From positions 1 through 21,580 of IMG/VR virus record IMGVR_UViG_3300050821_009272: DNA of 21,580 nt; one strand, written 5' to 3'. The notes beneath the pieces were generated by a model. It was not told where the DNA came from. It did no database searches and worked only from the letters and a program-made list of their open reading frames with translations. Made by a program: the position numbers and the translations under genes. Shown piece by piece: positions 2,162 to 17,608 of this stretch. Positions within the stretch are counted from its first letter, which is position 1. Each line of letters begins with the position of its first letter. Origin of the DNA: a virus.

Positions 2162-2373
2162 AAATGCTGATCGGTTTCACGGCGGGGTACGTCTTCTGCC
2201 TGTTCGTGATGTTCATGGAGCCGCCCATGCCGAAGATTGCAGTTCTGCCGCCGCGTGTTCCCGGAGCCTGTGGCGTCATGTTTGAGGTTATGACGACTGC
2301 GGCTACGACAGCGCCGACGACCACATGGTCTGAATGTGTCATTGGTGGGCTGGGATCGGATCACCGCCGATGA
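2158..2373 (+). CDS. Small membrane or exported protein, 71 residues
   Basis: Residues 4-20 (LIGFTAGYVFCLFVMFM) are a hydrophobic segment behind a short Lys-containing start, so the protein is either anchored at its N-terminus or carries an uncleaved signal. The rest is rich in Pro, Thr and Ala and has two Cys residues (in GACGV and SECVI) that could pair outside the cytoplasm. The ATG at 2158 overlaps the previous stop (ATGA). A longer frame from 2038 exists but would overlap the zinc-finger gene by over 120 bases. Function unknown. Confidence 0.6.
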   Translation: MKMLIGFTAGYVFCLFVMFMEPPMPKIAVLPPRVPGACGVMFEVMTTAATTAPTTTWSECVIGGLGSDHRR

Positions 2374-2546
2374 GCACCGAAGTCCACCCCAACTCCGTTT
2401 CCAGGCCATGCCGGGAAGTAACCCGTCACGAGCTCGACTCCACCTGTCCCCGCTGCGGTCACATCCACCAGGGAGACAAAGAGTGCGGAGAGCCGATGGG
2501 CGGAGGAAGGATTTGCCGGTGCGAGATGGAGGCGGTGCCGCGATGA
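2370..2546 (+). CDS. Small Cys-rich putative zinc-binding protein, 58 residues
   Basis: A CPRCGH motif (C26, C29) is followed by Cys39 and by a C-terminal CRC (C49, C51), with His at 31 and 33, so one zinc ion could be held. The ATG overlaps the preceding stop and the TGA at 2544-2546 overlaps the ATG of the next gene, which supports the frame although the protein is tiny. The frame is open further upstream in the preceding gene. Function unknown. Confidence 0.6.
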   Translation: MSTEVHPNSVSRPCREVTRHELDSTCPRCGHIHQGDKECGEPMGGGRICRCEMEAVPR

Positions 2547-2731: not shown

Positions 2732-2736
2732 GGTAG
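2714..2736 (+). other. Orphan ribosome-binding site and start codon (Met-Arg-stop)
   Basis: AAGGAG at 2714-2719 is eight bases before an ATG at 2728 that overlaps the upstream TGA in the same ATGA manner as the other junctions of this operon. The frame reads ATG AGG TAG and stops after two codons. It looks like the start of a gene that has been lost, perhaps when the next gene was inserted. A leader-type mini-ORF is the alternative. Confidence 0.45.
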
Positions 2737-2809
2737 AATGGCTGCCGCGCCTAGAAGTCCTCCCCCAGGGCTGTACACAAAATCGCTGTTCCACAAAGGA
2801 GAAACTCCC

Positions 2810-4018
2810 ATGAAAAAGCTGTCGCTGTGCTTCCTGAACTTCGTCCTGGCTGCCTCGGCGTTCGCCCAGACCTACCAGCAGGTCTACGTGGTCCCTGGCA
2901 ATCGTCCCTTCGTCAATCCCTATGCCGGGCTCGCGATTGTGGGCAAGGTGGCCTACAGCTCGACTCAATACGGTGGTGTGTATTCAGCGACGCCCGGCGC
3001 CCTCGCAGATCACCGCTCGCAGTGCTCCACCAACCAGGCCTGCTTCAGTTACGCATCGCTCACTCCCAATGGCCTGGGACAGCTTTTCGGAGTTACGCCC
3101 CTGCCGCTGAATTCGCAGGGGCTGGCGGCGGGCGAAGTCTTCATGGTGGACACCACGAAGTCCGGTTGGCCGGCCACCGCGCTCTACCAGTTCACCGGCG
3201 GAGCGGATGGTGGCATTGGCCCAGGGGCCACTGAAGCCAACCTGATCTTCGATGCTGCTGGCAACCTATGGGGCACCACTTACACTGGCGGAAATTTCGG
3301 CTGCCCCTATGGGAACCAAACAGTTTACTGCGGCGTGGTGTTTGAGCTGGTGAACAACGGCAACGGCACCTGGACCGAGCAAGTGATTCATGCCTTCTCT
3401 GGGCCGGACGGATGGGGACCAGTCGCGGCTCTGACGCTCTACCAGGGAAATTTCTACGGCACCACGGAATTCGGTGGTGATTTGAACTGCTCCTACGACC
3501 CAGGCGAGGGATGCGGGACGCTGTTTGAGCTGACCCCGAACCAGAAAGGCGGCTGGACCGAAACCATCCTGCACAATTTTGAGGGCGGAGTATCCGACGG
3601 CGCCCAACCACTGGCGGGCGTGACGATTGACGCGCAAGGCGACATCTTTGGGACCACTGGGTATGCTGCGAACCTAGGCAATGATCCCGGCGGCTCGGTG
3701 TACGAGCTTTCTGCTGGCGGCGTGTATTCACTTTTGCAGTCCGATATGGGCGTGCCCGAGGGCGCCCTAGTGTTCGACAAGCAAGGCAACCTGTGGGGCA
3801 CTTCCTCGCAAGGCGGCCTCGGCTTTGGAACGGTTTTTGAGCTGGTGAAGGGGGTGACCTTCCAGGTGCTGCACAACTTCACCGGCGGGGACGTTCCGCC
3901 AGATGGCGCGTTTCCGGCCGGCGCTTTAGCGATCGACGGCAATGGCAACCTGTGGGGAACAACGCCGAAGGGTGGCTACAAGTGCGGGTGCGGGACGTTC
4001 TTTGAAGTCAAACCGTGA
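2810..4018 (+). CDS. Secreted GloVer (Gloeo/Verruco) tandem-repeat protein
   Basis: This 402-residue protein begins with a Sec signal peptide: basic MKK, a hydrophobic core, and a likely cleavage after ASAFA or at AFAQ (about residue 20). The mature part is built from repeats of the type 'GNLWGTT..GG..G.VFEL', here around residues 145-181, 208-241, 273-300, 322-344 and 375-400, with a weaker copy near 89-113. This matches the Gloeo/Verruco repeat family, usually found in extracellular proteins of soil bacteria; a beta-propeller-like fold is plausible but not shown. Unlike many relatives it has no visible C-terminal sorting signal. The ATG at 2810 is preceded by AAAGGAG at good distance. It is a bacterial-type cargo gene within phage genes, probably exported by the host. 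Function unknown. Confidence 0.8.
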   Translation: MKKLSLCFLNFVLAASAFAQTYQQVYVVPGNRPFVNPYAGLAIVGKVAYSSTQYGGVYSATPGALADHRSQCSTNQACFSYASLTPNGLGQLFGVTPLPLNSQGLAAGEVFMVDTTKSGWPATALYQFTGGADGGIGPGATEANLIFDAAGNLWGTTYTGGNFGCPYGNQTVYCGVVFELVNNGNGTWTEQVIHAFSGPDGWGPVAALTLYQGNFYGTTEFGGDLNCSYDPGEGCGTLFELTPNQKGGWTETILHNFEGGVSDGAQPLAGVTIDAQGDIFGTTGYAANLGNDPGGSVYELSAGGVYSLLQSDMGVPEGALVFDKQGNLWGTSSQGGLGFGTVFELVKGVTFQVLHNFTGGDVPPDGAFPAGALAIDGNGNLWGTTPKGGYKCGCGTFFEVKP

Positions 4019-4243
4019 ATGAGTGAAGCATGCAAACTCGAAATCTCCCAGGTCAAGGTGACTCTCCAGAATGGGCGCTGGGAAGTCGCCGTGATCTGGG
4101 AAGGCTTGCCGTTTCTTTTGCGGGTGGGAACGGGTGACAGCCCCGAGGAAGCTATGACGAATGCGCTCAGGCAAGTGGTGGCGGATTGCCGGGACGAACT
4201 CAGCCCTTCTCCGAGTTGCACACCCAGTGCGCCGCCCCGTTGA
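4019..4243 (+). CDS. Small hypothetical protein, 74 residues
   Basis: The ATG at 4019 directly follows the TGA of the GloVer gene without its own ribosome-binding site, so it probably depends on re-initiation. The pattern of a strand pair (LEISQVKVTLQNGRWEVAV, then FLLRVGTG) followed by a helix (SPEEAMTNALRQVVADC) looks like a small folded domain. The C-terminal Pro/Ser-rich end overlaps the convergent HNH gene by 44 bases. No family recognised. Confidence 0.5.
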   Translation: MSEACKLEISQVKVTLQNGRWEVAVIWEGLPFLLRVGTGDSPEEAMTNALRQVVADCRDELSPSPSCTPSAPPR

Positions 4244-4565
4244 CCGAGTTCCCTGCTCCGTCTTCAATGCGGTCATCCCGGAAGGCTGCACCCATGCCTC
4301 GGCGTCGTTGGTGCTCAAAAGTGGCGTCGTTTCGCGCCAAGCGGCGTTTACAGAGGCAGCAGCGATAGTTCTGGCGTTGCACCATCACTTCCACCCGGCG
4401 CGTGTATTCCCGCCAGCCCTGGGCGTTCTCCTGGCAAACCTCGCGGCCGTCGGAATAGGTGCGGACGGAATTTGAGGAGTTCACGGTGTAGTGCTGGGAG
4501 TTGACTGGTTTGGTTCCCCTTGACCAGTGGTAGTCGCTGCGGGGGATGGGGCGGCGGCGGATCAT
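4200..4565 (-). CDS. HNH-type nuclease-like protein, 121 residues
   Basis: The C-terminal half has the layout of a zinc-supported HNH domain. C69/C70 and C72 (YRCCLCKRRL) are followed by Glu84-His85 (ATFEHQ), and then by N109, H113 and C116-N117 (NGAAHWVCNSEKG). His85 would be the general base and N109/H113 the remaining core residues. In phages such proteins nick or cut DNA during packaging or recombination, or act as homing nucleases; here it ends the leftward early operon, not beside the terminase. The ATG overlaps the stop of the preceding Cys-rich gene (ATGA). Its 3' end overlaps the convergent plus-strand gene. The C-terminal helix after CN is very short, so activity is not certain. Confidence 0.7.
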   Translation of the reverse strand: MIRRRPIPRSDYHWSRGTKPVNSQHYTVNSSNSVRTYSDGREVCQENAQGWREYTRRVEVMVQRQNYRCCLCKRRLARNDATFEHQRRRGMGAAFRDDRIEDGAGNSVNGAAHWVCNSEKG

Positions 4566-5067: not shown

Positions 5068-5826
5068 CTACAAACCACCAACCTCCTCTCGGAACGAATC
5101 CATGATCTTGACCACCGGCTGCGGCCCACGCTTCGCGTTCACCAGGGCCACGGATTTGTGCAGCATCATTTCCAGCCCATCGTCTTTGAGTGAAGCCAGC
5201 CGCACCAGGTAGTCCTTCACTTCGGCCAAAAAGTTCTCAACCGCCAGCTCGATCTCGGCGATCCGCGTCTCGTCCCGGTGCAGGCGTTTGACGAACAACT
5301 GCAAGTCCGCTGGCAACCGTGGGTCGAACGATACGAAGTCGCACCAGGCTTTTCCCGTGCACGCCATTTCCGCGAACATCTGGGAACGATATTCCGCTGG
5401 AACCTCGCCTTTCAGCAAGTATTCAATGTGAGTGGCTGTGTTGGGGCATTTGAACTGCACCAGGCCGTCGTCAGAGACCAGGCCGTCCGGGGAGCAGCCG
5501 AAGTTCTCGAGGCGCGGGTGCTCACAGAAGCCCATGGTGTCCACCAGGAACCCTCGATAGAGTTCGTAGTTGCCACGGGCGCGGGATTCGTTGTCGATGC
5601 CCCACTGCACGGCGCGGAGATTGTTGAGCCAGGAATCGTCGCAGGGTTCCCCGGACAGAATCTCCGCGATCAGTTGAGCGCGGTAGTTCGCCCGCCCCGC
5701 GGTTTCTTTCTCGGTCTTCTTGGGTTTCGAGAGCACATTGGCGATGGCCGAGGCGGTGACTTTCCCCATGCGGGCCAGCCGCCACTCGTCGCTGCGCTGT
5801 TCGCAGAGCTGGTTAGCGGTTGCCAT
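5068..5826 (-). CDS. YqaJ-type viral recombinase exonuclease
   Basis: This 252-residue protein resembles the YqaJ/lambda-exonuclease group of PD-(D/E)xK nucleases, which resect DNA ends for single-strand annealing. Visible marks are QRSDEWRLARMGKVTAS near the N-terminus (residues 10-26), the acidic helix WGIDNESRAR (Glu80), the catalytic strand pair SPDG (Asp114) with QFKCP (Gln124, Lys126), and RSQMFAEMACTG (148-159). In the canonical motif the second position is Glu (ExK); here it is Gln, encoded by CAG. The ATG at 5826 has AAAGGGG upstream and overlaps the end of the ERF gene by 14 bases, so exonuclease and annealing protein form the usual recombination pair. The Gln change may lower or alter activity. 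Confidence 0.85.
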   Translation of the reverse strand: MATANQLCEQRSDEWRLARMGKVTASAIANVLSKPKKTEKETAGRANYRAQLIAEILSGEPCDDSWLNNLRAVQWGIDNESRARGNYELYRGFLVDTMGFCEHPRLENFGCSPDGLVSDDGLVQFKCPNTATHIEYLLKGEVPAEYRSQMFAEMACTGKAWCDFVSFDPRLPADLQLFVKRLHRDETRIAEIELAVENFLAEVKDYLVRLASLKDDGLEMMLHKSVALVNAKRGPQPVVKIMDSFREEVGGL

Positions 5827-6595
5827 TGGGAAACCCCTTTCTGCGCTCGTCCTTGGCCCGCACATAAGCATCTTCGGCGGCGGCATCGCCGAGTTCATGG
5901 GCTTCCCGGTAGGCGGCGAAGTAGACCTGTTTCATGGCGTCCAGGTTTTCCGCCTTGAGAATCTTCTGGCAGAATTCCCGGACGCGCTCGGAAGCGATTC
6001 GGCTCTTGCCGTTCGTGGGCGTGTTGCCGTCGGTGTCGTCTTCCCCGATGGCGAGATTGAATACGTCTTTCACCAAGTACCGCTTGGCGTAGGAGTCGGC
6101 GGCGGCGGTCGCGTGGGTTTTGCTCATCACGTCGCCGCCCTTCGGCCCCTTACCATCTGTGGGCATGTCGATCTGGTAGAGCCGGGTGTACGATCCGAGG
6201 CCAGCCACACAAACCACGCGGATGTGATCGGGCTTCGGGCTGTCGCCATGCGAGAACGAGAGGCTCATGCCTTCGGCGGTATAGAGCGGACGGATGATTC
6301 GATCAATCGCCGCGTAAGAGGCGTACTTCGAGCTGGTCTGCGGGTTGAGCAGGTCGGGTGCGATCCGCGCCACTGCCGCCTGTATCCGGCTCAGGGCGTC
6401 ATTGAAGTCGGTTTTCGCGTCGCGCATCAACACTTTCTCTTGCAGCGCGACCAGCCGTTCGATCACGTCGATGGCGGCATTGTTTTCGAGGGCGAGAGAA
6501 AGCAAGTCCATCGGCGAGTGAATGTTTTCCGGGAGTGCCTTTCTCCCGAGATGGTGAACTTCCGGCTGAGGGTTCGTGACCTGTGCGGTTGCCAT
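5813..6595 (-). CDS. erf: ERF-type single-strand annealing protein
   Basis: The 260-residue protein fits the ERF superfamily (P22 Erf-like), which coats single-stranded phage DNA and anneals complementary strands. The conserved core lies at about residues 60-185. It includes KTDFNDALSRIQAAV, the KYASYAAIDRIIRPLY segment with its lysine-tyrosine start, GLSLSF-like GMSLSF, and a late SKTHATAAADSYAKRYLVKDVFNLA followed by an acidic GEDDTDG. The C-terminal 70 residues are charged and variable. The start at 6595 has GGGAGGGG upstream. The gene lies directly before the YqaJ exonuclease with overlap, the classic partner arrangement. Confidence 0.88.
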   Translation of the reverse strand: MATAQVTNPQPEVHHLGRKALPENIHSPMDLLSLALENNAAIDVIERLVALQEKVLMRDAKTDFNDALSRIQAAVARIAPDLLNPQTSSKYASYAAIDRIIRPLYTAEGMSLSFSHGDSPKPDHIRVVCVAGLGSYTRLYQIDMPTDGKGPKGGDVMSKTHATAAADSYAKRYLVKDVFNLAIGEDDTDGNTPTNGKSRIASERVREFCQKILKAENLDAMKQVYFAAYREAHELGDAAAEDAYVRAKDERRKGFPNGNR

Positions 6596-7210: not shown

Positions 7211-7261
7211 ATACAAAGCCGCTCTGTATAGGCGGCGAAAAGCCGTTATAAACTCGCCGCA
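7211..7261 (+). promoter_or_regulatory. Rightward control region with nested inverted repeats
   Basis: Three exact inverted repeats overlap here: TATACA/TGTATA (7211-7216 and 7226-7231), GCCGC/GCGGC (7219-7223 and 7233-7237) and GCGGCGA/TCGCCGC (7233-7239 and 7255-7261). The last one brackets TATAAA at 7248-7253, a likely -10 element for the gene at 7262; no good -35 is seen. The ATG lies nine bases after the -10, so the message would be nearly leaderless. The repeats could be operators, or one could be an RNA hairpin. Confidence 0.45.
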
Positions 7262-7405
7262 ATGACGACCTTGAGTGAGCACCTCTCCCGGATCGGGCGC
7301 AAAGGCGGAAAGGCCACGGCGCAACGTCGCACCGTAAAAGAACGACAGGAAGCTGCCCGCAAAGCAGTGTCGGCGCGTTGGGCCAAAACAAAGAAGGACA
7401 AATGA
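7262..7405 (+). CDS. Small basic protein of the GGKA...ARWAK type, 47 residues
   Basis: The 47-residue product is very basic: a GRKGGKATAQRR segment is followed by a helix ending AARKAVSARWAKTKKDK. I recognise this 'GGK.R/A ... AA.ARW.K' style from tiny proteins on phages and plasmids, probably DNA- or RNA-binding. It is the first rightward gene after the divergent control region and lacks a Shine-Dalgarno. The next gene ends in a similar ARWAKQKKESK, so the two may be related by duplication or may act together. Confidence 0.6.
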   Translation: MTTLSEHLSRIGRKGGKATAQRRTVKERQEAARKAVSARWAKTKKDK

Positions 7406-7559: not shown

Positions 7560-7807
7560 AAACGGTTTGGCCGCGCTCACCTGAATTCGCCGCCGCTGAG
7601 TTCGACTGCCATTTCCTGCGCTGCTGCGGAATCGAGTGGCCAGAAATGTGGGAGATATATCGGGCGCGTGAACGTATGGAATTGATGCGGGCCGCCGAAG
7701 CGGAGATGATCCAATATCAACTCGCGCCGCCGATGCTCTACGACCACTGGGGCAGACGAATCGATGAGATTTACAGACCCACCACCCGCAAGCCTGACCG
7801 TGGGTAG
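7556..7807 (+). CDS. Hypothetical protein, 83 residues
   Basis: The protein is rich in Trp, Arg and acidic residues and starts at a GTG that overlaps the previous stop. The middle is helical (EMWEIYRARERMELMRAAEAEMI). There are paired Cys residues in LRCCGIEW, but no complete zinc site. No family recognised. The bases up to the next gene (7808-7860) hold no gene but contain a TATAAT and a repeated 13-base sequence, annotated separately. Confidence 0.55.
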   Translation: MKTVWPRSPEFAAAEFDCHFLRCCGIEWPEMWEIYRARERMELMRAAEAEMIQYQLAPPMLYDHWGRRIDEIYRPTTRKPDRG

Positions 7808-7836
7808 CTGGCCCCGGAAGCCCCTCACCACGGAGC

Positions 7837-7849
7837 CGCACTTCGTAGA
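7837..7849 (+). repeat. Direct repeat CGCACTTCGTAGA, copy 1
   Basis: This 13-base sequence recurs exactly at 8090-8102, 253 bases downstream. The copies lie 12 bases before the start and 16 bases before the end of the zinc-ribbon gene, so they nearly flank it. It could be a recombination scar or a protein site; chance is not excluded. Confidence 0.5.
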
Positions 7850-7852
7850 GGA

Positions 7853-7858
7853 TATAAT
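7853..7858 (+). promoter_or_regulatory. Candidate -10 element (TATAAT) at the zinc-ribbon gene
   Basis: A perfect TATAAT lies two bases before three consecutive ATG codons (7861, 7864, 7867). If active, transcription would begin near 7865-7867, so the third ATG would start a leaderless message. No convincing -35 is present at 7830-7835. Confidence 0.35.
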
Positions 7859-7860
7859 TC

Positions 7861-8118
7861 ATGATGATGGACTTTCTTACAATCCTCGATTCCGGCGTCG
7901 AAGTTCTCGCAACTGCATTTCCGGTCAAAGGGGGCGGAATCAAATGGCGCTGTGGCGCGTGTCGCAGAGGGTTGGTATCGCGGCCCACCGCTCCTGGCGT
8001 TGATAAAATCGAACAACGCTGCCCAGTGTGTCACCGAAAAGTGCTGTTTCGCATATGGGTGAAAAACAAAGTCCCAGCACATTTGGAGACGCACTTCGTA
8101 GACCATCATTCTTCGTGA
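7861..8118 (+). CDS. Small zinc-ribbon protein, 85 residues
   Basis: Two Cys pairs, C31-x2-C34 (WRCGACRRG) and C54-x2-C57 (QRCPVCHRK), form a classic zinc-ribbon, a fold common in nucleic-acid-binding phage proteins. The N-terminal part (FLTILDSGVEVLATAF) is hydrophobic and the end is His-rich. Translation could begin at any of three ATG codons in a row; the last is favoured if the TATAAT just upstream is the promoter. A 13-base direct repeat lies just before the gene and again near its end. The exact role is not known. Confidence 0.65.
   Translation: MMMDFLTILDSGVEVLATAFPVKGGGIKWRCGACRRGLVSRPTAPGVDKIEQRCPVCHRKVLFRIWVKNKVPAHLETHFVDHHSS
8090..8102 (+). repeat. Direct repeat CGCACTTCGTAGA, copy 2
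   Basis: Second exact copy of the 13-base sequence at 7837-7849. It lies inside the last codons of the zinc-ribbon gene, where it encodes part of the His-rich tail. Loose similarity continues for some bases after both copies (ATTC...GTGAT-like). Confidence 0.5.
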
Positions 8119-8269
8119 TTTCGAATCTAAAGTCCTTCTCACTTCGGTAACTTGCTTCCCTTCCCTTCTTTAAGCCACTCTCAGGACTGTTTCCGTCGTC
8201 CCCGTGGTCCCAGGCACACCTGCTCGAACGCCCGCCGGCGCGTCGCAGCCGCGCATACCGCAGAACCCC

Positions 8270-8596
8270 ATGAGAATTCCTGTCTTCGCTCGACGGTCGA
8301 ACCCCTCCGTGGACCGTCCCTTCCTCAAAAAGAGCCTGTTCTACGTGACAGAGCAGGTGAACGCTGGCCGCGCCGACTGGGTTGATCCGTCGTCTCCAGC
8401 TCGAGGCATCATCTGCCGCGAGCTGCTCTACTTCGGCGAACGGGCGCAAAGAGTCGAAACGGTGGCGATCTCGAAGCTCGGCTTCACTACCGGCGAAATC
8501 CCCGGCCTGCGCTGGGTGGGGCCGAAACCGAAAATCCAGTTAGTAACTACGACGCCAGCCGACTTCCAGCAATACGCGGGAGCGGCAACCGCGTGA
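8270..8596 (+). CDS. Hypothetical protein, 108 residues
   Basis: I do not recognise this protein. It is mixed alpha/beta in look, with a conserved-looking middle (GIICRELLYFGERAQRVETVAISKLGF) and a Pro/Gly-rich region (GEIPGLRWVGPKPK). The frame is open upstream to a GTG at 8204, but the added 22 residues are low-complexity Pro/Ala/Arg, so I take the ATG at 8270. No clear ribosome-binding site precedes either. The 151 bases from 8119 to 8269 show no gene, promoter or hairpin that I can support. Confidence 0.55.
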   Translation: MRIPVFARRSNPSVDRPFLKKSLFYVTEQVNAGRADWVDPSSPARGIICRELLYFGERAQRVETVAISKLGFTTGEIPGLRWVGPKPKIQLVTTTPADFQQYAGAATA

Positions 8597-8603
8597 GAGC
8601 ACC

Positions 8604-8771
8604 ATGCAGCGCATCACCATCACAATCTCGGGAAAACTCCACGAGGAGTTGGTGATCGCCACGCTTGATTCGGCGGAGCTGGACGAAGACCTGACCATGA
8701 CACCGGAGGACTACGCCCGCGAGTGCATTGAGAGTGTGCTGGCAACCCGGCGCCTGGCTGCGATCGGCTAA
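8604..8771 (+). CDS. Small hypothetical protein, 55 residues
   Basis: A strand-like start (RITITISGKLHEELVIATL) is followed by acidic residues and a helical end (PEDYARECIESVLATRR). This strand-helix-helix order recalls small ribbon-helix-helix-like or antitoxin-like proteins, but no family can be named. The ATG follows the previous stop by seven bases, with GAGAG as a weak ribosome-binding site. Confidence 0.5.
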   Translation: MQRITITISGKLHEELVIATLDSAELDEDLTMTPEDYARECIESVLATRRLAAIG

Positions 8772-8780
8772 CTGAAGTCC

Positions 8781-9029
8781 ATGCACGCCTGGTCCAAGAC
8801 ATTCCGCCGCATCCCGGACGACTGGCGGGACGCCTACAAGCACCGCACCCGCGAAGAACTACTGGGTGATGTGGAGATCGCCTTCGACCGCCTCCACGAT
8901 CAGAAGTTGAAGATGTGGTTTCTGACCTTCGTTCTGGGCCTCGAAGGAGCAATGCTCGGCTGGATGGCGAACAGCCTGATTGATTGCATCGAGCTGGGCC
9001 ACAAGTTTGCGGCGGTCGTAGGCCGCTAA
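8781..9029 (+). CDS. Small membrane protein, 82 residues
   Basis: A basic, helical N-terminal half (RIPDDWRDAYKHRTREELLGD) precedes one membrane segment at about residues 45-67 (MWFLTFVLGLEGAMLGWMANSL). The N-terminal part is probably cytoplasmic. The acidic Glu within the segment makes a simple anchor less certain. The stop TAA shares its last base with the ATG of the next tiny gene. Function unknown. Confidence 0.6.
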   Translation: MHAWSKTFRRIPDDWRDAYKHRTREELLGDVEIAFDRLHDQKLKMWFLTFVLGLEGAMLGWMANSLIDCIELGHKFAAVVGR

Positions 9030-9136
9030 TGCTCCCCACCTTCAAAGCTCGTTACGAACGCTACGCAGCCTGGTGTAGGCTTCTCGGAAAGAAACCGCTC
9101 AGCCTGGCCGGCTATGTGTGGGTTTGCGTGCGATGA
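9029..9136 (+). CDS. Tiny basic protein coupled to the recombinase, 35 residues
   Basis: The ATG shares a base with the previous stop and the TGA overlaps the recombinase ATG by four bases, so the frame joins both neighbours. The product is basic and aromatic (FKARYERYAAWCRLLGKK). It may exist mainly to couple translation of the recombinase. No known family. Confidence 0.4.
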   Translation: MLPTFKARYERYAAWCRLLGKKPLSLAGYVWVCVR

Positions 9137-9684
9137 ACGTCGCTCTCTACGCCCGCGTATCGAAGTTGGCCCGCATAAATCCCTCCGAGGATCAGAAGCG
9201 CGACCAGAATCCCGAAGTGCAGCTCCGTGAGCTGAGGGAATGGTCGAAGCGCGAGGGCCATAAAGTGATCGCCGAATATGTGGATCGCGCCAGCGGCAAG
9301 AACATGCAGCGGCCGCAACTACAAAAACTGATGCGCGATGTGCGAGCCGGAAACTACGACATCGACGCCGTGGTGGTGTGGCGCCTCGATCGCTTCGGTC
9401 GGTCGGTGCTGGATCTGCACAGCCTCATTGCTGAACTACAGGCCGCGAAAGTCTCGTTCATCTGCCAGCGTGATAACTTCGACCTCACCAGCTCGATCGG
9501 CAAAGTGATCTTTGGGATCCTCGCCGTGTTCGCAGAATTTGAGCGGAATGTGATTGCGGAGCGCACTAAAGCCGGCCTCGCCCTGGCTCGATCGGAAGGC
9601 CGGTTACCTGGTCGAAAGATTGACCCGAAGCGCGGCCCGAGCCGCACCACGCGCTGGCGGCAAAAACAGCGGAAAACCGCCTAG
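9133..9684 (+). CDS. Serine recombinase (resolvase/invertase type) lacking a C-terminal helix-turn-helix
   Basis: This 183-residue protein has a full resolvase catalytic domain: YARVS with Arg8 and catalytic Ser10, the VVWRLDRFGRS segment (DRFGR, residues 86-90), SIGKVIFGILAVFAEFERN and the long dimer helix with IAERTKAGLALAR (to about 152). After GRLPGRK only some 20 basic residues remain (GPSRTTRWRQKQRKTA); the usual helix-turn-helix DNA-binding domain of about 40 residues is missing or reduced to a trace. Such enzymes cut and rejoin DNA at paired sites for integration, inversion or dimer resolution. Here specificity is unclear. The ATG at 9133 overlaps the stop of the tiny upstream gene; a GTG at 9118 is less likely. 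It lies beside a repeat-rich non-coding stretch that could hold its site. Confidence 0.85.
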   Translation: MNVALYARVSKLARINPSEDQKRDQNPEVQLRELREWSKREGHKVIAEYVDRASGKNMQRPQLQKLMRDVRAGNYDIDAVVVWRLDRFGRSVLDLHSLIAELQAAKVSFICQRDNFDLTSSIGKVIFGILAVFAEFERNVIAERTKAGLALARSEGRLPGRKIDPKRGPSRTTRWRQKQRKTA

Positions 9685-9885
9685 TAGGCGCGTTTCATAT
9701 CGACCGAAATGAAAAATCAACAACTTAGCGGCGTAAAAATGGGCGTTTTTCCGGTCCCATTTGATTTCCTATTTGATTCCGAAAACGCCGATTGTGCCCT
9801 TAACTCCTTGGCGGCTCATCGGTTTACGGCCTCCCGCCGGCATTTGATTCCGCCCAAATCATTTGATTAATAGTGCTTTTTTCAA
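9685..9885. repeat. Non-coding AT-rich stretch with four ATTTGATT repeats
   Basis: No gene is visible in these 201 bases. ATTTGATT occurs exactly at 9759-9766, 9771-9778, 9842-9849 and 9861-9868; copies two and three share ATTTGATTCCG. GGCGTTTT at 9742-9749 and AAAACGCC at 9782-9789 form an inverted repeat around the first two copies. Closer to the recombinase, TTTCAT/ATGAAA (9693-9714) and CGCC/GGCG (9678-9690) could form weak hairpins. The stretch separates the recombinase from the packaging genes and could hold a recombination site, a packaging site, a replication site or a late control region. Nothing decides between these. Confidence 0.55.
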
Positions 9886-10284
9886 ATGGCCGCGAAAAAG
9901 AACAAACGCGGGGGAAAGCGTCCGAATGCAGGCAGAAAAAAACGTGAGATCACACCGCCCGAGCCGATCGACGGCCGCACCATTAAAGGCCGTATCCGTT
10001 CCGGTGAACTCATTGAAAAACTTAATGCACTGCCACCAAAGGAAGGCGATCCGATCGATGTTGCCGGGTGGCGTCGTTTTTGGGACAGCCTAGATCAGCG
10101 GATCGCGCTCGACACGCGCAAATACCTCCACAACCAGCACGAAGGCGAACCCGTGAAGACCATCAACCACGTGCACGACAAGCCGATCGACCTCAACGTG
10201 AATGTGTCGATGGCGGATGTGGTCCGCCAGGTCCGCGAACGAAAACAACAATATGAGCGCAGCCGCAATAAATCCTCTCGCTGA
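9886..10284 (+). CDS. Probable small terminase subunit, 132 residues
   Basis: The call rests mainly on position directly before the large terminase, with a 32-base overlap, and on a very basic N-terminus (RGGKRPNAGRKK), a signature often seen at the start of phage small terminase and DNA-binding proteins. The rest has a helical, charged segment (IRSGELIEKLNAL, RRFWDSLDQRIAL) and a Lys/Arg-rich end. It would recognise phage DNA and present it to the large subunit. No Shine-Dalgarno is seen before the ATG. Another DNA-binding function remains possible. Confidence 0.6.
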   Translation: MAAKKNKRGGKRPNAGRKKREITPPEPIDGRTIKGRIRSGELIEKLNALPPKEGDPIDVAGWRRFWDSLDQRIALDTRKYLHNQHEGEPVKTINHVHDKPIDLNVNVSMADVVRQVRERKQQYERSRNKSSR

Positions 10285-11788
10285 AATACAGCGCGAGCTG
10301 GCGGAATTCACCGATGATCCGCTCGGCTTTGTGATGTGCGCCTATCCCTGGGGAACCGGCGAGCTCGCCGGCGAAGCTGGGCCGCGCGCGCACCAGGTCA
10401 AGTTCTTAAAAGAACTCGGGGAGCATCTGCGCAATCCTGAGAGCCGCTACAAACCCTTCCGCAAAGCCAAATCCTCGGGCCACGGCATCGGCAAGACGAC
10501 AGAGTTTGCCTGGATCACGCACTGGGGTCTCTCGACCTTTGAAGACTGCAAAGTGATCCTCATGGCCGGCACCGGCGACCAGCTCAAGACCAAAACCCAG
10601 CCCGAATGTGCGAAGTGGTTTCGCCTGGGCGCCAACGCGGATCTGTTCGAAGTGAACGTGACATCGATCAAGGTGCGCGAATCGGGCCACGAGACCACCT
10701 GGCGCGCGGACTTCAACACCTGGTCGGAAGAAAATCCCCAGGCTTCGGCTGGCGCCCACAACAAAGGCAAGCGGCTGATCATCCTCTACGACGAATCCGC
10801 CGGCATTCCCGATGTGATCTGGAAGACGCAGGAAGGCGCGATGACCGACACCCGCACCGAGATCATCTGGCTTGCGGCCAGTCAATGCACGCGCTCCGAT
10901 GGTTTCATGTTCGACGCGGTGTTCGGCAGCCAGCGGCATCGCTGGAACCCCGAGGTCATCGACTCCCGGACCGTCGAGGGCGTGAACGTCGAGGAAATCA
11001 ACGAAGACATCGCCGTCTATGGCGAAAACTCCGATCACGTCCGCGTACGCTGGCTCGGGCTTTACCCGCTGGGCGGTGAAGGCAAGTTCATCCCGCTCGA
11101 CATCATCGAAGCCGCGCAGACGCGAACCGCGGTCAAGTTGGACGATGACGCCCTGATCGCCGGCGTCGATCTCTCCTGGGGCGGCTCCGATGATACCGTG
11201 ATCCGTTTCCGGCGAGGGCTTGACGCGCGCACAATTCCGCCAGTCAAAATTCGCGGCGAACACACAAAGAACCCTACCGTCGTGCGCGAACGATTGGCGG
11301 ATATTTTACGGAAGAAATACGACGGCAGTGCGGTGTCGATGATGTTCCTCGATAACTCGGGCGTCGGTGGCAACGCTGGCGCCATCCTCGCAGGCCTGCA
11401 GCAGCTCGGCTTCAAAAACGTCATGGGCATCAACTTCGGCGACCAGGCGCTGAACTCCAAGTTCTACGTTCTCCGCCGCGATGAGATGTGGGGCGGGATG
11501 AAGGATTGGTTGCGCGAAGGGGGCGCCATCGACGACGACCGCGAGCTGCAGGTGGATCTGCAAAAGCCGATGCTCATTCCGGACCGCGAGCAGCGCATCA
11601 AGCTCGAACCCAAAGACCTGATGAAGAAACGCCTTGCGAAAGCCGGAATGGATTCCTCTTCGCCCGACGATGCCGACGCGCTGGCGCTGACGTTCGCGCT
11701 GCCCGTCACATTCATTAAGCCGATCTCGGCGCAGCCGCCAGTGATCAGCGCCTGGGAGCGCACCGGAGACGGCTCATGGATGGGGTAA
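10253..11788 (+). CDS. terL: Phage terminase large subunit
   Basis: This 511-residue motor protein packages DNA into the prohead using ATP and cuts it with its nuclease. Walker A is SSGHGIGKT (about 74-82), Walker B is LIILYDE (175-181, acidic D180/E181). The RNase H-like nuclease domain shows GVDLSWGG (Asp306), MMFLDNSG (Asp367) and DDADALALTF (Asp472-475). The order and size fit the family well. The ATG at 10253 lies inside the end of the small-subunit gene; the frame further upstream overlaps it and is unlikely. It would dock on the portal encoded at 13179. Confidence 0.92.
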   Translation: MSAAAINPLAEIQRELAEFTDDPLGFVMCAYPWGTGELAGEAGPRAHQVKFLKELGEHLRNPESRYKPFRKAKSSGHGIGKTTEFAWITHWGLSTFEDCKVILMAGTGDQLKTKTQPECAKWFRLGANADLFEVNVTSIKVRESGHETTWRADFNTWSEENPQASAGAHNKGKRLIILYDESAGIPDVIWKTQEGAMTDTRTEIIWLAASQCTRSDGFMFDAVFGSQRHRWNPEVIDSRTVEGVNVEEINEDIAVYGENSDHVRVRWLGLYPLGGEGKFIPLDIIEAAQTRTAVKLDDDALIAGVDLSWGGSDDTVIRFRRGLDARTIPPVKIRGEHTKNPTVVRERLADILRKKYDGSAVSMMFLDNSGVGGNAGAILAGLQQLGFKNVMGINFGDQALNSKFYVLRRDEMWGGMKDWLREGGAIDDDRELQVDLQKPMLIPDREQRIKLEPKDLMKKRLAKAGMDSSSPDDADALALTFALPVTFIKPISAQPPVISAWERTGDGSWMG

Positions 11789-11955
11789 GCCTGATCGACG
11801 GCGTACGCGAGCCGGTGTTTTACATTCTCACCAAGGAAATGCTCAACCGCCTGATCGAAGTAGCCGTCGCGCAAAACAGTCCCGCTCTTCACATGTCCTG
11901 CGACTGGCTGAGCGAACTCAAAAGGAGCCAATATGGCCGGAATCCAAGTAGCTGA
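11776..11955 (+). CDS. Small hypothetical protein, 59 residues
   Basis: An ATG at 11776, within the last codons of the terminase and preceded by GGAG, opens 59 codons that end inside the next gene. The protein is mixed: GVREPVFYILTKEMLNRLIEVAVAQ looks like a strand and helix, with one Cys and two Trp/aromatic positions afterwards. Overlaps of 13 and 23 bases with its neighbours are in the range seen in this module. No family recognised. Confidence 0.5.
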   Translation: MDGVSLIDGVREPVFYILTKEMLNRLIEVAVAQNSPALHMSCDWLSELKRSQYGRNPSS

Positions 11956-12214
11956 ATCGACCGCAAAGAAGCGCAGCCCGAAAACTCTTGACCACCTTGA
12001 GCTCCATCCCCAGCTCGGCGGCGGCCACATCGTGAAGCACGTTTACACGGGCTACGACCACGAGTCGAAGGAAGTGAAGTTCAACGCCGAAGGCAAATCC
12101 CAGGGCGGCGAGCACATCATGAAGCACCTGGTGAAACACGGCGGAATTCCGCTCATGACCAATGCAGAAGGCAACGGCGACGAATCTCAAACCGAAGAAG
12201 AGGAGACCGAATAA
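11933..12214 (+). CDS. Hypothetical packaging-module protein, 93 residues
   Basis: AAAAGGAG precedes the ATG. The protein is rich in His, Gly and Lys in the middle (LGGGHIVKHVYTGYDHESKEVKF, GGEHIMKHLVKHGG) and ends in an acidic Glu tail. The two His-Gly-rich segments (GGGHIVKHV and GGEHIMKHL) resemble each other and may be an internal repeat. It may be a small DNA- or head-associated protein of the packaging module; no family is recognised. Confidence 0.6.
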   Translation: MAGIQVAESTAKKRSPKTLDHLELHPQLGGGHIVKHVYTGYDHESKEVKFNAEGKSQGGEHIMKHLVKHGGIPLMTNAEGNGDESQTEEEETE

Positions 12215-12216
12215 CC

Positions 12217-12585: not shown

Positions 12586-12615
12586 AGGCTTTCGTGGATT
12601 GCTACTTCTATATTT

Positions 12616-12646
12616 TTCCCTGTGATTGGTTCAGGGGGTTTTGTTT
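12616..12646 (+). terminator. Weak terminator-like hairpin
   Basis: CCCTG (12618-12622) and CAGGG (12632-12636) pair around a nine-base loop, extendable by two T-G wobble pairs, and are followed by a T-rich run (TTTTGTTTGT). The stem is short, so termination may be partial or absent. Confidence 0.3.
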
Positions 12647-12654
12647 GTATCTCT

Positions 12655-12691: not shown

Positions 12692-12726
12692 CACCCAAAT
12701 CGGCTGGATGCGAATTCCTCTCTAAA

Positions 12727-13188
12727 ATGCCTCTCACTCGCGAAGCCATCAAGCACGCGCCGGTGTCATCTGAGACCTGGCGCCCACAACGCACCCAGGC
12801 GGGCGGGCTGTGGTTTGACCCTTTAAAGGTCAAACCGATGGGCAATCACATCCTCGTTGTGCTCGATGGTGAACGCCCCGCAAGCCCGCGCCTGGTGATC
12901 CCTGACATCGCCCGCAACCAGGAGATCGGCACGCGGACCGGAACTGTAGTGGCAGTCGGCCCTGGGAAGTGGCACGAAAAGCCGGGCGAAACCTGGGAGA
13001 ACACCAGGCAGTACTTCATTCCCACCACCTTGAAGCCGGGCGATCGCGTGGTGATCGGCCACTACTCCGACTGGGAGTCCTGGTCATGTGATTACGAAGG
13101 GCGCGGCCCGAATGTGGTGCTCTGTCAGGAAGCCGACGTGCGGGTCGTGGAAAACGTCTCGATCGAGGAGATGGCCGCTTGCCTGTAG
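12727..13188 (+). CDS. GroES-like co-chaperonin (Cpn10 family), 153 residues
   Basis: Residues 34-142 fit the Cpn10 fold: KVKPMGNHILVVLD at the start, a loop region around RPASPRLVIPDIARNQE (50-66) where GroES has its mobile loop, TGTVVAVGPG (71-80), KPGDRVVI (103-110) and a final strand ADVRVVEN (136-143). Host GroES is about 97 residues; this protein has an extra N-terminal stretch of about 35 residues and an insertion before residue 100. Phage relatives such as T4 gp31 replace GroES to let GroEL fold the coat protein, a sensible role here between terminase and portal. The ATG at 12727 is preferred; one at 12838 would drop the N-terminal stretch. The stop overlaps the TTG start of the portal. 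Confidence 0.75.
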   Translation: MPLTREAIKHAPVSSETWRPQRTQAGGLWFDPLKVKPMGNHILVVLDGERPASPRLVIPDIARNQEIGTRTGTVVAVGPGKWHEKPGETWENTRQYFIPTTLKPGDRVVIGHYSDWESWSCDYEGRGPNVVLCQEADVRVVENVSIEEMAACL

Positions 13189-15362
13189 TCCTCTCGTCCA
13201 AATCGAAAAAGCGCAACAAGCGCATCTCGGACTCTGAAGAGCTGATCACGACCTCGCTGAAGCGGTTTAAGATCACCGCCGAGGCCGAGTCAGACTGGCG
13301 CCGCCAGGCGCTCGAAGATCTGAAGTTCTCGATCGGCACCGGGCAATGGGACGAGGCCGTCAAAGCCAATCGTGAAATCGAAGGCAAGCCCTGCCTCACC
13401 ATCAACCGGGCGCCAGCCTTTTTGCGGCAGTACACCGGCGAAGAACGCCAGCACCGCCCCGCCATGCTGGTGAGTCCCGTGGGCAACGGCGCGGACCGCG
13501 AAGCGGCGAAGATCCACCAGGGCGTGCTGCGGCACATTGAAGTCGTCAGCAGGGCGGACAACACTTACGACAGCAGCTACGACATGATGATGCGGATCGG
13601 CGTGTGCCCGTGGCGAGTCAACACAGAGTACGTTTCGGACACATCGTTCGATCAAGAGCCCCGCATTCAAGCGATCGAGAACCCCTTCGCGGTCTATCTT
13701 TCGCCCGTGCGCCGTCCGGACGGCACCGATCCGCTCTGGGGCCACGTGATCCGCGATTACTCGAAAGCCGACTACATTGCCGAGTTCGGAGACACCGAGC
13801 TGAAGAAACTTTCATTCCCCAGCTCTCAGGGCAATGCTGAGCCAGGCTGGGTCACCAAAGACGGTGTCCGGGTGGCGGAATATTGGTGGATTGAACTGCA
13901 GGCCAAGGTGCTTTGCTTGCTCGACGACGGAACCACCATACTGAAAGAAAAGATCATCGACGATCTCACCAAGGCGCGTGTGGTCGATGAGCGCGACACC
14001 ATTATCCGCAACGTGCACTGCATCAAGCACGACGCCATCTCGATCATCCAAAAATACGACTGGCTGGGCCGCTACCTTCCCTTCCCTGAAGTGAACGGAG
14101 TGCGGTTGAATGTCAACGGAAAAATCTATCGCGCCGGGATGGTGCGCGATTACCGTGATGCCCAGCGTATCTACGACTTCATGGTGACCCGGCAAGTCGA
14201 GCAGGTGGATCTGGTCTCGAAAGACCCGCTGTTGGTGCCCGAGGAGAACGCGCAATGGGACAACGACTACCGCCAGATGAACCGCAAGAACTTTTCCCAC
14301 ATATATTTCAAGGCTTATGACGCCAACGGGAAGGAGTTGCCTCCGCCGCAGCGTGCCGGCCGCGAAGCTCCGATCCAGGCGATGTCGGAGGTCATCAAGC
14401 AGGCCGACTACGACATGAAAGCCGTGATCGGCATCTACGGGCCGTCGCTCGGCGAAGAATCGGGCAGTCAGCCGGACTCCGGATTTGCCATTCTCACCCG
14501 CCAGCAGCAGACCGACACCGGCGCCGTCTCTTGGCACGACAATCTGAATCAAACGATCGCCTGGCAGGGCGTAATCCTGCTCGATCTCTGGCCGAAGTGC
14601 ATCAACTCCGCGCGTGTGCAGCGCATCGTGAACCCCGACGACAGCGTGCGCCATGCGGTGATCTACAACTCCCAGAACGACACCAACTCCGCCGACGCGC
14701 AAAAACTCATCAACGAGCAGATGGGCCTCAAGAAAGCCTACGACGTGGGAGTTGGCGATTACGATCTCGTGCTCTCGACCGGGCCGATGTACAAAGCCGC
14801 GCGGCAAGAGGCGTTCCGGGCGATGACGATGGTGATCAACGAGAATCCGGAAGTGATGCTGCCGATCGTGGGTGATATCTGGGCCAAAAACGCCGACTTT
14901 CCCGACGCCGACGTCCTCGCCGATCGTTTTAAGAAAATGCTGCCGCCGAATCTACAGGACACCGACTCCGAGGACCTGCAGGCGAAGTTCAACGCGGCGC
15001 AGGCGCAGCTCGCCCAGCTCTCGCAGATGCACAACCAGATGCTGCAGGAGCTGAATCGCGCGTCCGACACCATACGCACCAAGCGGCTCGATCTAGAAAG
15101 CCGCGAGCGCGTGGCGCTGATGAACAACTGGACGCAGCTCATGCTGCAGCGGCTGAAATCGCAGGACGCGGCCGCGCAGGCCCAGATGGATGCGCAGCTT
15201 GAAGCGATTTCCCAGCGCCTGCAGGTGCTGCACGAGAATATGTCGATCTCGGACGACGCCGGCGCCCCACCGGACACGCCCGAATTGCCGGGACAAGTTG
15301 AACCCAAGGTGCAACCGATCACGCCAGCCGCTCCAACACCGCGGCCGCAACCAGTTCAGTAG
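13179..15362 (+). CDS. P22-type portal protein, 727 residues
   Basis: The length matches the P22 portal (about 725 residues), and the order of segments fits: a helical N-terminus (ISDSEELITTSLKRFKI) followed by SDWRRQALEDLKF, the GKPCLTINRAPAF region, DPLWGHVIRDYSK, and a long C-terminal helical stretch from about residue 600 rich in Gln, Ala and Leu that would form the barrel. The portal forms the twelve-fold ring through which terminase pumps DNA. The start is TTG at 13179, overlapping the co-chaperonin stop; no ATG occurs until far inside. The next gene begins 35 bases after its stop behind a strong ribosome-binding site. Confidence 0.85.
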   Translation: MPVVLSSKSKKRNKRISDSEELITTSLKRFKITAEAESDWRRQALEDLKFSIGTGQWDEAVKANREIEGKPCLTINRAPAFLRQYTGEERQHRPAMLVSPVGNGADREAAKIHQGVLRHIEVVSRADNTYDSSYDMMMRIGVCPWRVNTEYVSDTSFDQEPRIQAIENPFAVYLSPVRRPDGTDPLWGHVIRDYSKADYIAEFGDTELKKLSFPSSQGNAEPGWVTKDGVRVAEYWWIELQAKVLCLLDDGTTILKEKIIDDLTKARVVDERDTIIRNVHCIKHDAISIIQKYDWLGRYLPFPEVNGVRLNVNGKIYRAGMVRDYRDAQRIYDFMVTRQVEQVDLVSKDPLLVPEENAQWDNDYRQMNRKNFSHIYFKAYDANGKELPPPQRAGREAPIQAMSEVIKQADYDMKAVIGIYGPSLGEESGSQPDSGFAILTRQQQTDTGAVSWHDNLNQTIAWQGVILLDLWPKCINSARVQRIVNPDDSVRHAVIYNSQNDTNSADAQKLINEQMGLKKAYDVGVGDYDLVLSTGPMYKAARQEAFRAMTMVINENPEVMLPIVGDIWAKNADFPDADVLADRFKKMLPPNLQDTDSEDLQAKFNAAQAQLAQLSQMHNQMLQELNRASDTIRTKRLDLESRERVALMNNWTQLMLQRLKSQDAAAQAQMDAQLEAISQRLQVLHENMSISDDAGAPPDTPELPGQVEPKVQPITPAAPTPRPQPVQ

Positions 15363-15397
15363 CAAAACACACCACACACCCAAACCAGGAGGAAGTG

Positions 15398-16324
15398 ATG
15401 ACACCATCAGGAATCGTTATGGCCAGTTCGTCAGTCGGGGCCACACAAGAAGCGATCGAGAAAGTTCTGACCGAAAACGGGCACGAACCGGAGAAACCGG
15501 CAGCCGCGGCCGTCGAAACGCCAGTCGAGCCGAAGCGCGAAGATTTCAAGACGGACGAAGAGTTCGCCGAGGCGCAAGAGACCTTTGCCACCGCGCAGGA
15601 GGAGGCCGAGGAAGCAGCCGAAGCCGCACGTCTCGCCGCCTTGCCCAAGAAATCACGACGCCAGAAAGCGGTCGAAAAGGCCACCAAGGACCTGAAGGAT
15701 GAGAACCGCCGGCTCGCCGATCGCGTGGCTGCCCTCGAAGGCAGGGGCGGCGAAAAGAAAGAGCCTGTCGCGGCCGCGCCCAAAGCGCCCGAGCGCAAAG
15801 ACTTTAAGACCGATGCCGAATACGACGACGCCATGTTCGACTACCGCTACCAGCTTCGCCGCGCCAAAGAGCAAGCCGAGCAATCGAAGACCGCTCTCGA
15901 GGCGAAGATGCGAAAGAATTTCACCCACTACCAAACCTCAGTGCCGGAGTTCAAAGAGGAACACGACGACTGGGACGATGTAGTCAACCAAGAACTACCC
16001 ATTCCCGATCCCGTTTACTTCGCCATTGTCGATCTCGGAAAAGAGGGGCCCGCAGTGACCTACTACCTGGGGCAGCATCCCGAGGAAATCGACAGGCTTG
16101 GCGAGATGACACCGTACCGCGCCGCCATTGAAGTTGGCCGACTGGCCGACAAACTGAAGAGCAAGACTCCAGGCAACGCGGAAAGAAAAATCCCGCCGAA
16201 GAAACTGCCCGCGCCGGTCACGCCGGTCTCGACTTCGGCCACCACCTCATCGCTCACCTCGCGCGAAGCCGCCAACAACAAGGATTTCAAAGCCTTTAAA
16301 GCCGCCCAGCGCCGGGGAGCGTAA
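15398..16324 (+). CDS. Probable scaffolding protein, 308 residues
   Basis: The protein lies between portal and coat genes and is highly charged and helical, rich in Glu, Ala, Lys and Arg, as scaffolds are. About residues 65-120 should form a coiled coil. A segment DFKTDEEFAEA near residue 50 recurs as DFKTDAEYDDA near residue 132, an internal repeat. The C-terminal end is basic with a helix (NKDFKAFKAAQRR), as in coat-binding ends of scaffolds. The ATG at 15398 lies five bases after a perfect AGGAGG; an in-frame GTG at 15395 would be too close. It would guide coat assembly and then leave the head. The scaffold call is from composition and position, not from a recognised domain. Confidence 0.65.
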   Translation: MTPSGIVMASSSVGATQEAIEKVLTENGHEPEKPAAAAVETPVEPKREDFKTDEEFAEAQETFATAQEEAEEAAEAARLAALPKKSRRQKAVEKATKDLKDENRRLADRVAALEGRGGEKKEPVAAAPKAPERKDFKTDAEYDDAMFDYRYQLRRAKEQAEQSKTALEAKMRKNFTHYQTSVPEFKEEHDDWDDVVNQELPIPDPVYFAIVDLGKEGPAVTYYLGQHPEEIDRLGEMTPYRAAIEVGRLADKLKSKTPGNAERKIPPKKLPAPVTPVSTSATTSSLTSREAANNKDFKAFKAAQRRGA

Positions 16325-16339
16325 ACAGGAGAATTCACC

Positions 16340-17608
16340 TTGTCAAACATGATCCTTACCAACCAGGAGATCAGCTTCAAGAACTTGATGGTGCTTGAAA
16401 ACTCCGTCTCCTTCACCAAGAAAGTGGTCCGCCGCTACGACGATAAATTCGGCCGCACCGGCGCGAAGATCGGCTATATCATCAACATCCGCAAACCCGC
16501 GCGTTCTGTTTCCACTGCGGGCCAGGGGATTCAACTCCAGGACTACATCGAACGCTCGGTACCTCTGGCGCTTAACAAGCAGTACCAGCAGGCCGCAGGC
16601 TTCACCTCGTCCGATCTGTCTTTGTCGCTCGATGATTTCACCAACCGCGTCACCAAACCAAAGATCGTCCAGCTCGCCAACGACATCGACTACGACGGTC
16701 TGCAGCAGTTCATCAACGTGCCGGCGGAAGTGGGAACACCGGGAACGGTGCCCTCAACTCCTGACACGTATTTGAACGCTCTGCAGGTGCTCGCCGATGA
16801 AGGTTTTCCCATCGATGACGTGGAAGGATTGTCGGTCCACATCTCACCGCGCATGCAGCGCAGCATTTTCCCGGCACTCCAAGGCCTCGTGGCCACCGGA
16901 TCCGGCACTGCGAGCTTCGCTTTCTTGCGCAACCTGGCAAAAGGCGAGGGCGGTGAGGCCGATTACTTCAAGGGCCTGGTCGCGAAAGGTCTGGGATTCG
17001 ATTGGTTCATGACCCAGAACGCTCCGACCTTCACCACCGGCACCCAGGGCGGATCTCCGGTTGTGAACGGCGCCAACCAGACGGGCAGCTCGATCGCAAC
17101 TTCCGGCTGGTCGAACAATACCAACGTACTGAACCAGGGCGATGTGATTTTCTTCGCCGGGGTTCACCGCATCAATCCGCTGACCCGCCAATCGACCGGC
17201 GATCTGCGGCCGTTCGTTGTCACTGCGGCTTGCAACACCAACGGCTCCGGTCAGGTCAACATCCCGATCGCGTGCGTCGATGGCGACGGCATCACCCTCG
17301 CCGGTCCTTACCAGACCGTCGATGTGTCGCCGGCGAACTCGGCCGCGATCACGGTGCAGGGCACCTCTGCGGTTCAGTCCTATCGCGGCGTGGCGTTCCA
17401 TCCCGAGGCCTTCTGCTTTGGCTGCGCGGATCTCGAAATGTACGAGAACCAGCACATGATGGAAATGGCGGCAGATAAAGAGTTGGGCCTGGCGATTCGT
17501 ATGTGGGCTCAGCCTGACATCAACACCGATCGGCTGCTGATGCGGTTAGACGTGCTCGGTGGATGGCTCACCATGTACGGCCAGGCCGCGGTGCGGATCG
17601 CCAGCTAG
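16340..17608 (+). CDS. P22-type major coat protein, 422 residues
   Basis: The length (P22 coat is about 430), position after the scaffold and sequence style match the P22 coat family: an N-terminal NQEISFKNLMVLENSVSFTK stretch, GAKIGYIINIRKPAR, DYIERSVPLALNKQYQQ, and a C-terminal AFHPEAFCFGCADLE followed by MRLDVLGGWLTMYGQAAVRI. The protein forms the icosahedral shell. The TTG start at 16340 stands eight bases after AGGAG; the ATG at 16349 is too far from it. Two Cys in the C-terminal region (FCFGCADL) could be close in the fold. A 59-base gap separates it from the next gene. Confidence 0.87.
   Translation: MSNMILTNQEISFKNLMVLENSVSFTKKVVRRYDDKFGRTGAKIGYIINIRKPARSVSTAGQGIQLQDYIERSVPLALNKQYQQAAGFTSSDLSLSLDDFTNRVTKPKIVQLANDIDYDGLQQFINVPAEVGTPGTVPSTPDTYLNALQVLADEGFPIDDVEGLSVHISPRMQRSIFPALQGLVATGSGTASFAFLRNLAKGEGGEADYFKGLVAKGLGFDWFMTQNAPTFTTGTQGGSPVVNGANQTGSSIATSGWSNNTNVLNQGDVIFFAGVHRINPLTRQSTGDLRPFVVTAACNTNGSGQVNIPIACVDGDGITLAGPYQTVDVSPANSAAITVQGTSAVQSYRGVAFHPEAFCFGCADLEMYENQHMMEMAADKELGLAIRMWAQPDINTDRLLMRLDVLGGWLTMYGQAAVRIAS

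What the first reader, a model, noticed from the sequence alone, without database searches (positions are those of the whole stretch)
2810..4018. Secreted GloVer-repeat protein carried as cargo within phage genes
A 402-residue Sec-exported protein with five clear and one weak GloVer repeats lies between small phage genes and the early recombination operon. The family is known to me from cellular genomes, not from phages. It has its own ribosome-binding site, is much larger than its neighbours and could change the surface or surroundings of an infected or lysogenic host.
Basis: partly seen in the sequence, partly recalled or inferred. Interest (0 to 1): 0.6.

Follow-up and report, generated by a model that had tools for sequence, protein, structure and literature searches.

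The report
Secreted propeller gene carried by phages
A soil phage carries, wedged between its own early genes, a bacterial-type gene for a secreted propeller-shaped protein, and other soil phages have picked up relatives of the same gene several times, which suggests phages use it outside the infected cell.

Summary
The ORF at 2810-4018 encodes a 402-aa Sec-exported protein with five scored TIGR03803 (GloVer) repeats (101 bits, cut-off 44). The window is a virus record with P22-like terminase, portal, scaffold and coat genes. Genes on both sides of the GloVer gene match related phages that have other small genes there, so it is phage-borne cargo, not a host flank. None of 57 related phage records carries it, yet profile searches found GloVer genes in 15 other viral contigs. 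Two share this phage's early genes but carry GloVer in a second slot; one has it between portal and head protease. Two related phages share a sharply bounded 1.3-kb GloVer cassette (98.9% identical, few amino-acid changes). Phage copies are scattered among acidobacterial ones on a tree, so capture was probably repeated. A family member is predicted to be a seven-bladed beta-propeller (pLDDT 84). In related phages the two slots hold other secreted proteins, a Rap1a immunity protein or methyltransferases. Best reading: exported cargo acting at the host periplasm or surface, perhaps in superinfection exclusion; this role is untested. Lysogeny of this phage is not supported by the window.

The parts
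2810..4018 (+). GloVer-repeat protein, 402 aa, Sec-exported, no C-terminal anchor
   Evidence: ORF; TIGR03803 E 1.6e-29, 101 bits
2810..2866 (+). Signal peptide, 19 residues (cleavage AFA|QTYQ)
   Evidence: sequence; heuristic scan
3044..3202 (+). Degenerate sixth GloVer-like repeat
   Evidence: by eye only; below the profile threshold
3230..4015 (+). Five GloVer repeats: 3230-3406, 3416-3586, 3599-3739, 3752-3892, 3905-4015
   Evidence: TIGR03803 matches
2732..2809 (+). Leader with ribosome-binding site AAAGGAG (2795-2801); left edge of the insertion
   Evidence: sequence; no sigma-70-like promoter found
2334..2546 (+). Zn-ribbon phage gene, left of slot A
   Evidence: homologues in L014, L020, L023, L026, L105
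2543..2731 (+). Small membrane-protein gene, left border of slot A
   Evidence: homologues in L013, L014, L026, L105
4019..4243 (+). Small ORF whose ATG abuts the GloVer stop (TGAATG)
   Evidence: sequence; no significant Pfam match
4200..4565 (-). HNH-type endonuclease-like phage gene, right border of slot A
   Evidence: homologues at 59-69% identity in L013, L014, L026, L027, L044, L047, L105; sub-threshold Endonuclease_7 match
5068..5898 (-). RecE-like exonuclease
   Evidence: phrog_149 3.8e-39
5813..6595 (-). Erf-like ssDNA annealing protein
   Evidence: phrog_155 2.9e-24
7259..7405 (+). Conserved small basic (KGG-like) gene; marks cargo slot B, which holds GloVer in L044 and L047 but no recognised cargo here
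   Evidence: sub-threshold KGG match
9118..9684 (+). Small serine recombinase (resolvase/invertase type)
   Evidence: phrog_125 2.5e-44
10250..11788 (+). Terminase large subunit
   Evidence: phrog_2 1.3e-23
13179..17608 (+). Portal, scaffold and P22-type coat protein genes
   Evidence: phrog_156, phrog_8865, phrog_283

Best explanation
This is a bacterial secreted-protein gene that a soil podovirus, probably of Acidobacteriota, has taken into its early region as cargo (a 'moron'). Shown by sequence: it is a GloVer protein with a signal peptide, lies between two conserved phage genes, and relatives hold other genes there. Strongly inferred: it folds as a seven-bladed beta-propeller and is exported, unanchored, to the periplasm or outside. 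Inferred from context only: it binds a component of the host envelope or matrix and protects the infected cell, most likely by masking or altering surface receptors (superinfection exclusion). The alternatives in the same two slots of related phages (other secreted proteins, a Rap1a immunity protein, methyltransferases of kinds often used on surface molecules) are exported or surface-directed too. I give about 0.93 to 'phage-borne exported cargo' and about 0.4 to the envelope-protection role; the score below is for the whole.
For: GloVer match and signal peptide. Virus record with P22-like head genes. Both flanks found in relatives without GloVer; 0 of 57 related records carry it. Fifteen other viral contigs encode GloVers; the 12 examined begin with a signal-peptide-like stretch. 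L044 and L047 share this phage's early genes and carry GloVer in slot B. L091 has it between portal and head protease. L045/L046 share a 1294-bp block at 98.9% identity with mosaic or 87% flanks, 9 synonymous against 3 non-synonymous differences. Tree: phage copies scattered, 8 label changes, 7-9 in bootstraps, at least 2 forced. Fold: L041 model pLDDT 84, pTM 0.85, propellers at VIA Z about 30. Slot contents.
Against: No experiment or solved relative gives a function for GloVer. The window copy has no close homologue, so selection on it could not be measured; it has a long branch and degenerate N-terminal blades. The model of the window protein itself is only pLDDT 70 and fails for residues 26-78. 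No promoter of its own was recognised. The host is inferred from the distribution of GloVer and similar G+C, not from CRISPR or integration; only 1 of 396 acidobacterial genomes had a distant coat-protein relative.
Confidence: 0.5

Rival explanations
1. Host-fitness cargo: the secreted propeller binds or helps process extracellular polymer or nutrients and improves the infected or lysogenic acidobacterium, like an auxiliary metabolic gene.
For: Some acidobacterial genomes carry dozens of GloVer proteins, so the family matters to those cells. L092 and L043 hold integrases in the same contig, so some carriers may be temperate.
Against: No enzyme family is assigned; only a weak generic propeller match in Pfam. 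No recognised integrase in this phage. Slot neighbours in relatives are immunity, methyltransferase or unknown secreted genes rather than nutrient enzymes.
Confidence: 0.25
2. Passenger: a host gene caught by recombination, with no function for the phage, on its way to loss.
For: Sporadic: absent from 57 related records. Long branch and degenerate N-terminal blades. Acidobacterial genomes offer many copies to recombine with.
Against: Frame, signal peptide and RBS intact; GC3 0.73 matches the phage genes (0.70-0.82 for most) rather than the sampled cellular GloVers (0.62-0.65), so it is not a fresh capture. Recurrence in at least several phage types, cassette exchange and few amino-acid changes in L045/L046.
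Confidence: 0.15
3. Virion or tail-associated propeller that only looks exported.
For: The same phage group has another signal-peptide protein right after the coat gene, and viral structure libraries hold propellers in structural proteins.
Against: It lies among early genes far from the head genes in the window, L044 and L047, in one case on the opposite strand to the head genes (L091); related phages assemble without it.
Confidence: 0.06
4. Assembly artefact: a cellular GloVer gene wrongly joined into a phage contig.
For: No second assembly covers the gene; L011 covers only 7644-16923, and an exact search for the right junction found no other viral contig.
Against: Two misjoins at exact gene borders would be needed; both flanks are phage genes in phage order; base composition matches the phage; GloVers occur in other phage contigs.
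Confidence: 0.04

Closest known systems
NCBIfam TIGR03803, choice-of-anchor tandem repeat GloVer-containing protein (cellular; many in Acidobacteriota)
   Same: Repeats above the curated threshold, tandem arrangement, signal peptide
   Different: Carried by a phage; only five repeats scored, N-terminal blades degenerate; no C-terminal anchor
Phage morons / lysogenic conversion cargo, e.g. surface lipoprotein Ltp of Streptococcus thermophilus phages (PMC3952083) and the P22 superinfection-exclusion genes (PMC10883804)
   Same: Extra host-directed gene set between phage genes, placed outside the cytoplasm or membrane
   Different: Different fold and family; lysogenic expression and exclusion not shown here; no own promoter recognised
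Seven-bladed beta-propellers such as virginiamycin B lyase and the integrin alpha propeller
   Same: Predicted fold (VIA Z about 30 for the L041 model)
   Different: 9-14% sequence identity; catalytic or metal sites not examined; no sequence relationship found in PDB

Membership tests
TIGR03803 GloVer | Whole-protein score above the curated cut-off (44 bits) | tested here: met
   101.4 bits, E 1.6e-29
TIGR03803 GloVer | Tandem repeats of about 50 residues | tested here: met
   Five stretches in one frame
TIGR03803 GloVer | C-terminal sorting or anchor signal ('choice of anchor') | tested here: not met
   Protein ends at the last repeat (CGTFFEVKP); the sampled acidobacterial homologues also end there, so this is not required for membership
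Phage moron | Extra gene between genes that are adjacent or differently filled in related phages | tested here: met
   L013, L014, L026 lack it between the same flanking genes
Phage moron | Own promoter and terminator | tested here: inconclusive
   None found by a sigma-70/terminator consensus scan, which may not fit this host
Lysogenic conversion gene | Carried by a temperate phage and expressed from the prophage | tested here: inconclusive
   Only a small serine recombinase recognised in the 21.6-kb fragment
Superinfection exclusion protein | Blocks adsorption or entry of other phages | not testable with these tools
   Needs an infection assay
Seven-bladed beta-propeller | Seven four-stranded blades closed in a ring | tested here: inconclusive
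   Seven blades in the L041 relative at pLDDT 84; the window protein's own model is unresolved at residues 26-78

The most novel reading that the evidence does not exclude
Soil podoviruses of this group keep two exchangeable 'export slots' among their early genes, into which secreted or surface-modifying host genes, including GloVer propellers taken repeatedly from large acidobacterial paralogue pools, are swapped as tools of phage-phage competition or surface protection.
Probability: 0.3. Interest if true: 0.72.

Novelty: new variant of a known kind. Interest (0 to 1): 0.5.

Why it matters
GloVer proteins are numerous in some acidobacterial genomes and have no known function; no paper in the held library names the repeat. 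Repeated capture by phages suggests that the protein does something outside the cell that matters during infection. That gives a first testable idea of its role, and it points to cargo slots in the little-known phages of soil acidobacteria.

Tried and rejected
A close-relative scan of viral contigs with the protein itself found none, and tblastn of 50,697 phage records found none; only profile searches found viral homologues. Host by prophage: coat protein against 396 acidobacterial genomes gave one distant hit. Solved homologue by sequence: one chain at E 0.03 only. The large secreted protein of L023 looked tectonin-like to the eye, but no Pfam or PDB sequence match supports that and no other viral contig has it. 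Promoter and terminator scans gave nothing at the gene. Exact search for the right junction in viral contigs: none. Literature searches for GloVer or TIGR03803 returned nothing relevant. Contigs L039, L041, L042/L095 and L094 were not counted as clean evidence because GloVer may lie at a prophage edge or the contig is a fragment. A first survey of slot B by regular expression missed most members and was replaced by an HMM.

Full report
Observation. The ORF at 2810-4018 (+) encodes 402 aa. NCBIfam TIGR03803 matches at E 1.6e-29 and 101.4 bits, cut-off 44, with five separate repeats. Pfam shows only a weak generic propeller match. The N-terminus is a standard Sec signal peptide, AAAGGAG lies 8 bases before the ATG, and the mature protein has eight cysteines in close pairs.

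The window is a phage. It is a virus record of 21,580 bases with RecE-like exonuclease, Erf, a small serine recombinase, terminase, a P22-type portal, scaffold and coat protein. The nearest isolated phages by portal and coat protein are at 40% identity or less. A contig from another sample, L011, is identical over 7644-16923 but does not reach the GloVer gene.

The gene is an insertion. Related phages share the small Zn-ribbon and membrane genes on its left and the HNH-like gene on its right. Between the membrane and HNH genes L013, L014 and L026 have three to six small ORFs and no GloVer. None of 57 related records found by terminase or coat protein has a GloVer match, although many are fragments. 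In L023 the same place (after the Zn-ribbon gene, before the exonuclease) holds a different large protein with a signal peptide; in L105 a methyltransferase lies between the Zn-ribbon and membrane genes. I call this place slot A. GC3 of the GloVer gene (0.73) is in the range of the phage's own genes and above that of the sampled cellular GloVers, 0.62-0.65, so it is not a fresh capture.

GloVer genes recur in other phages. A profile including acidobacterial homologues found ten viral contigs and a second profile five more. Placement is clear in several. L091: between portal and head-maturation protease, on the opposite strand. L092: between terminase and integrase. L040/L043: near terminase, with an integrase further on in L043. 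L045/L046: beside phage methyltransferase, tRNA-His guanylyltransferase and Sak4-like genes, terminase elsewhere in the contig. L048: next to an exonuclease, terminase in the contig. L093: terminase and P22-type portal in the same contig. L047: between Erf and resolvase, upstream of a terminase 56% identical to the window's. L044: beside MTase (72%), HNH (64%) and resolvase (57%) homologues of the window, although no head gene could be named in that 71-kb contig. L039, L041, L042/L095 and L094 are ambiguous.

Slot B. In L044 and L047 the GloVer gene directly follows a small basic KGG-like gene that is conserved in this phage group (window 7259-7405). The same position holds related secreted proteins in L013 and L014, a secreted Rap1a immunity protein in L026 (Pfam 1.2e-19), and FkbM-type methyltransferases in L020 and L023. 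The window has no recognised cargo there.

Origin. Strong GloVer matches (E<=1e-14) occur in 7 of 99 sampled acidobacterial genomes, two of which hold dozens of proteins. The best cellular match to the window protein is 54% over 254 aa. In a tree of 46 proteins, phage and cellular copies are mixed: eight label changes, 7-9 in bootstraps, at least two forced by well-supported branches. Many branches are long and weakly supported, so the number of captures is uncertain. L045 and L046 share a 1294-base GloVer block at 98.9% identity while flanks are mosaic or 87% identical, with nine synonymous and three non-synonymous differences, dN/dS about 0.12. This points to movement of the cassette between phages and to selection, in that pair only.

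Fold. The window protein was modelled as a beta-propeller at pLDDT 70 with residues 26-78 unresolved; Foldseek gave propellers (E 5.6e-9). The relative L041 was modelled at pLDDT 84, pTM 0.85; I read seven blades from its strands, with the N-terminal strand closing the last. It aligned to known seven-bladed propellers at Z about 30.

How it may work. The gene has no recognised promoter or terminator and its stop codon abuts the next start, so it is probably read with the early genes. The product should be exported and left unanchored in the periplasm or outside. Propellers commonly bind ligands or partners (general knowledge). The company it keeps in slots A and B suggests protection or alteration of the host envelope; phage proteins placed outside the membrane are known to exclude other phages (Ltp, PMC3952083). 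This last step is inference. Host-fitness cargo, passenger, virion part and assembly error are weighed as rivals.

Novelty. Secreted phage cargo is a known kind; a GloVer propeller as recurrent phage cargo appears undescribed in the held literature. I rate it a new variant of a known kind, interest 0.5.

Noticed in passing
window 17668-18504: A 278-aa protein with a Sec-like signal peptide lies right after the coat gene; similar signal-peptide proteins follow the coat gene in L013, L026, L027 and L070. An export signal in the head-gene region is odd.
   Followed up: partly
L023:2317-3894: A 525-aa secreted protein without any Pfam or PDB sequence match sits in the slot where the window has GloVer.
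   Followed up: partly
L026:5806-6186: A phage-encoded secreted Rap1a-family immunity protein (Pfam 1.2e-19) in slot B.
   Followed up: partly
window 7259-7405: Small basic KGG-like gene conserved across the phage group just before the variable slot B; function unknown.
   Followed up: partly
L045:9172-9888 and L046:5928-6404: Directly upstream of the shared GloVer cassette one phage has a tRNA-His guanylyltransferase (phrog_4717, 3e-74) and the other a secreted 158-aa protein instead.
   Followed up: no
BFVD A0A481Z910 (Pithovirus LCPAC304): The best viral structural match to the GloVer model is an uncharacterised pithovirus protein at 22% identity, possibly a GloVer relative in a giant virus.
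   Followed up: no
L140:11432-19640: The 71-kb GloVer-bearing contig G628 encodes three 800-980-aa proteins in a row that all begin with signal-peptide-like stretches.
   Followed up: no
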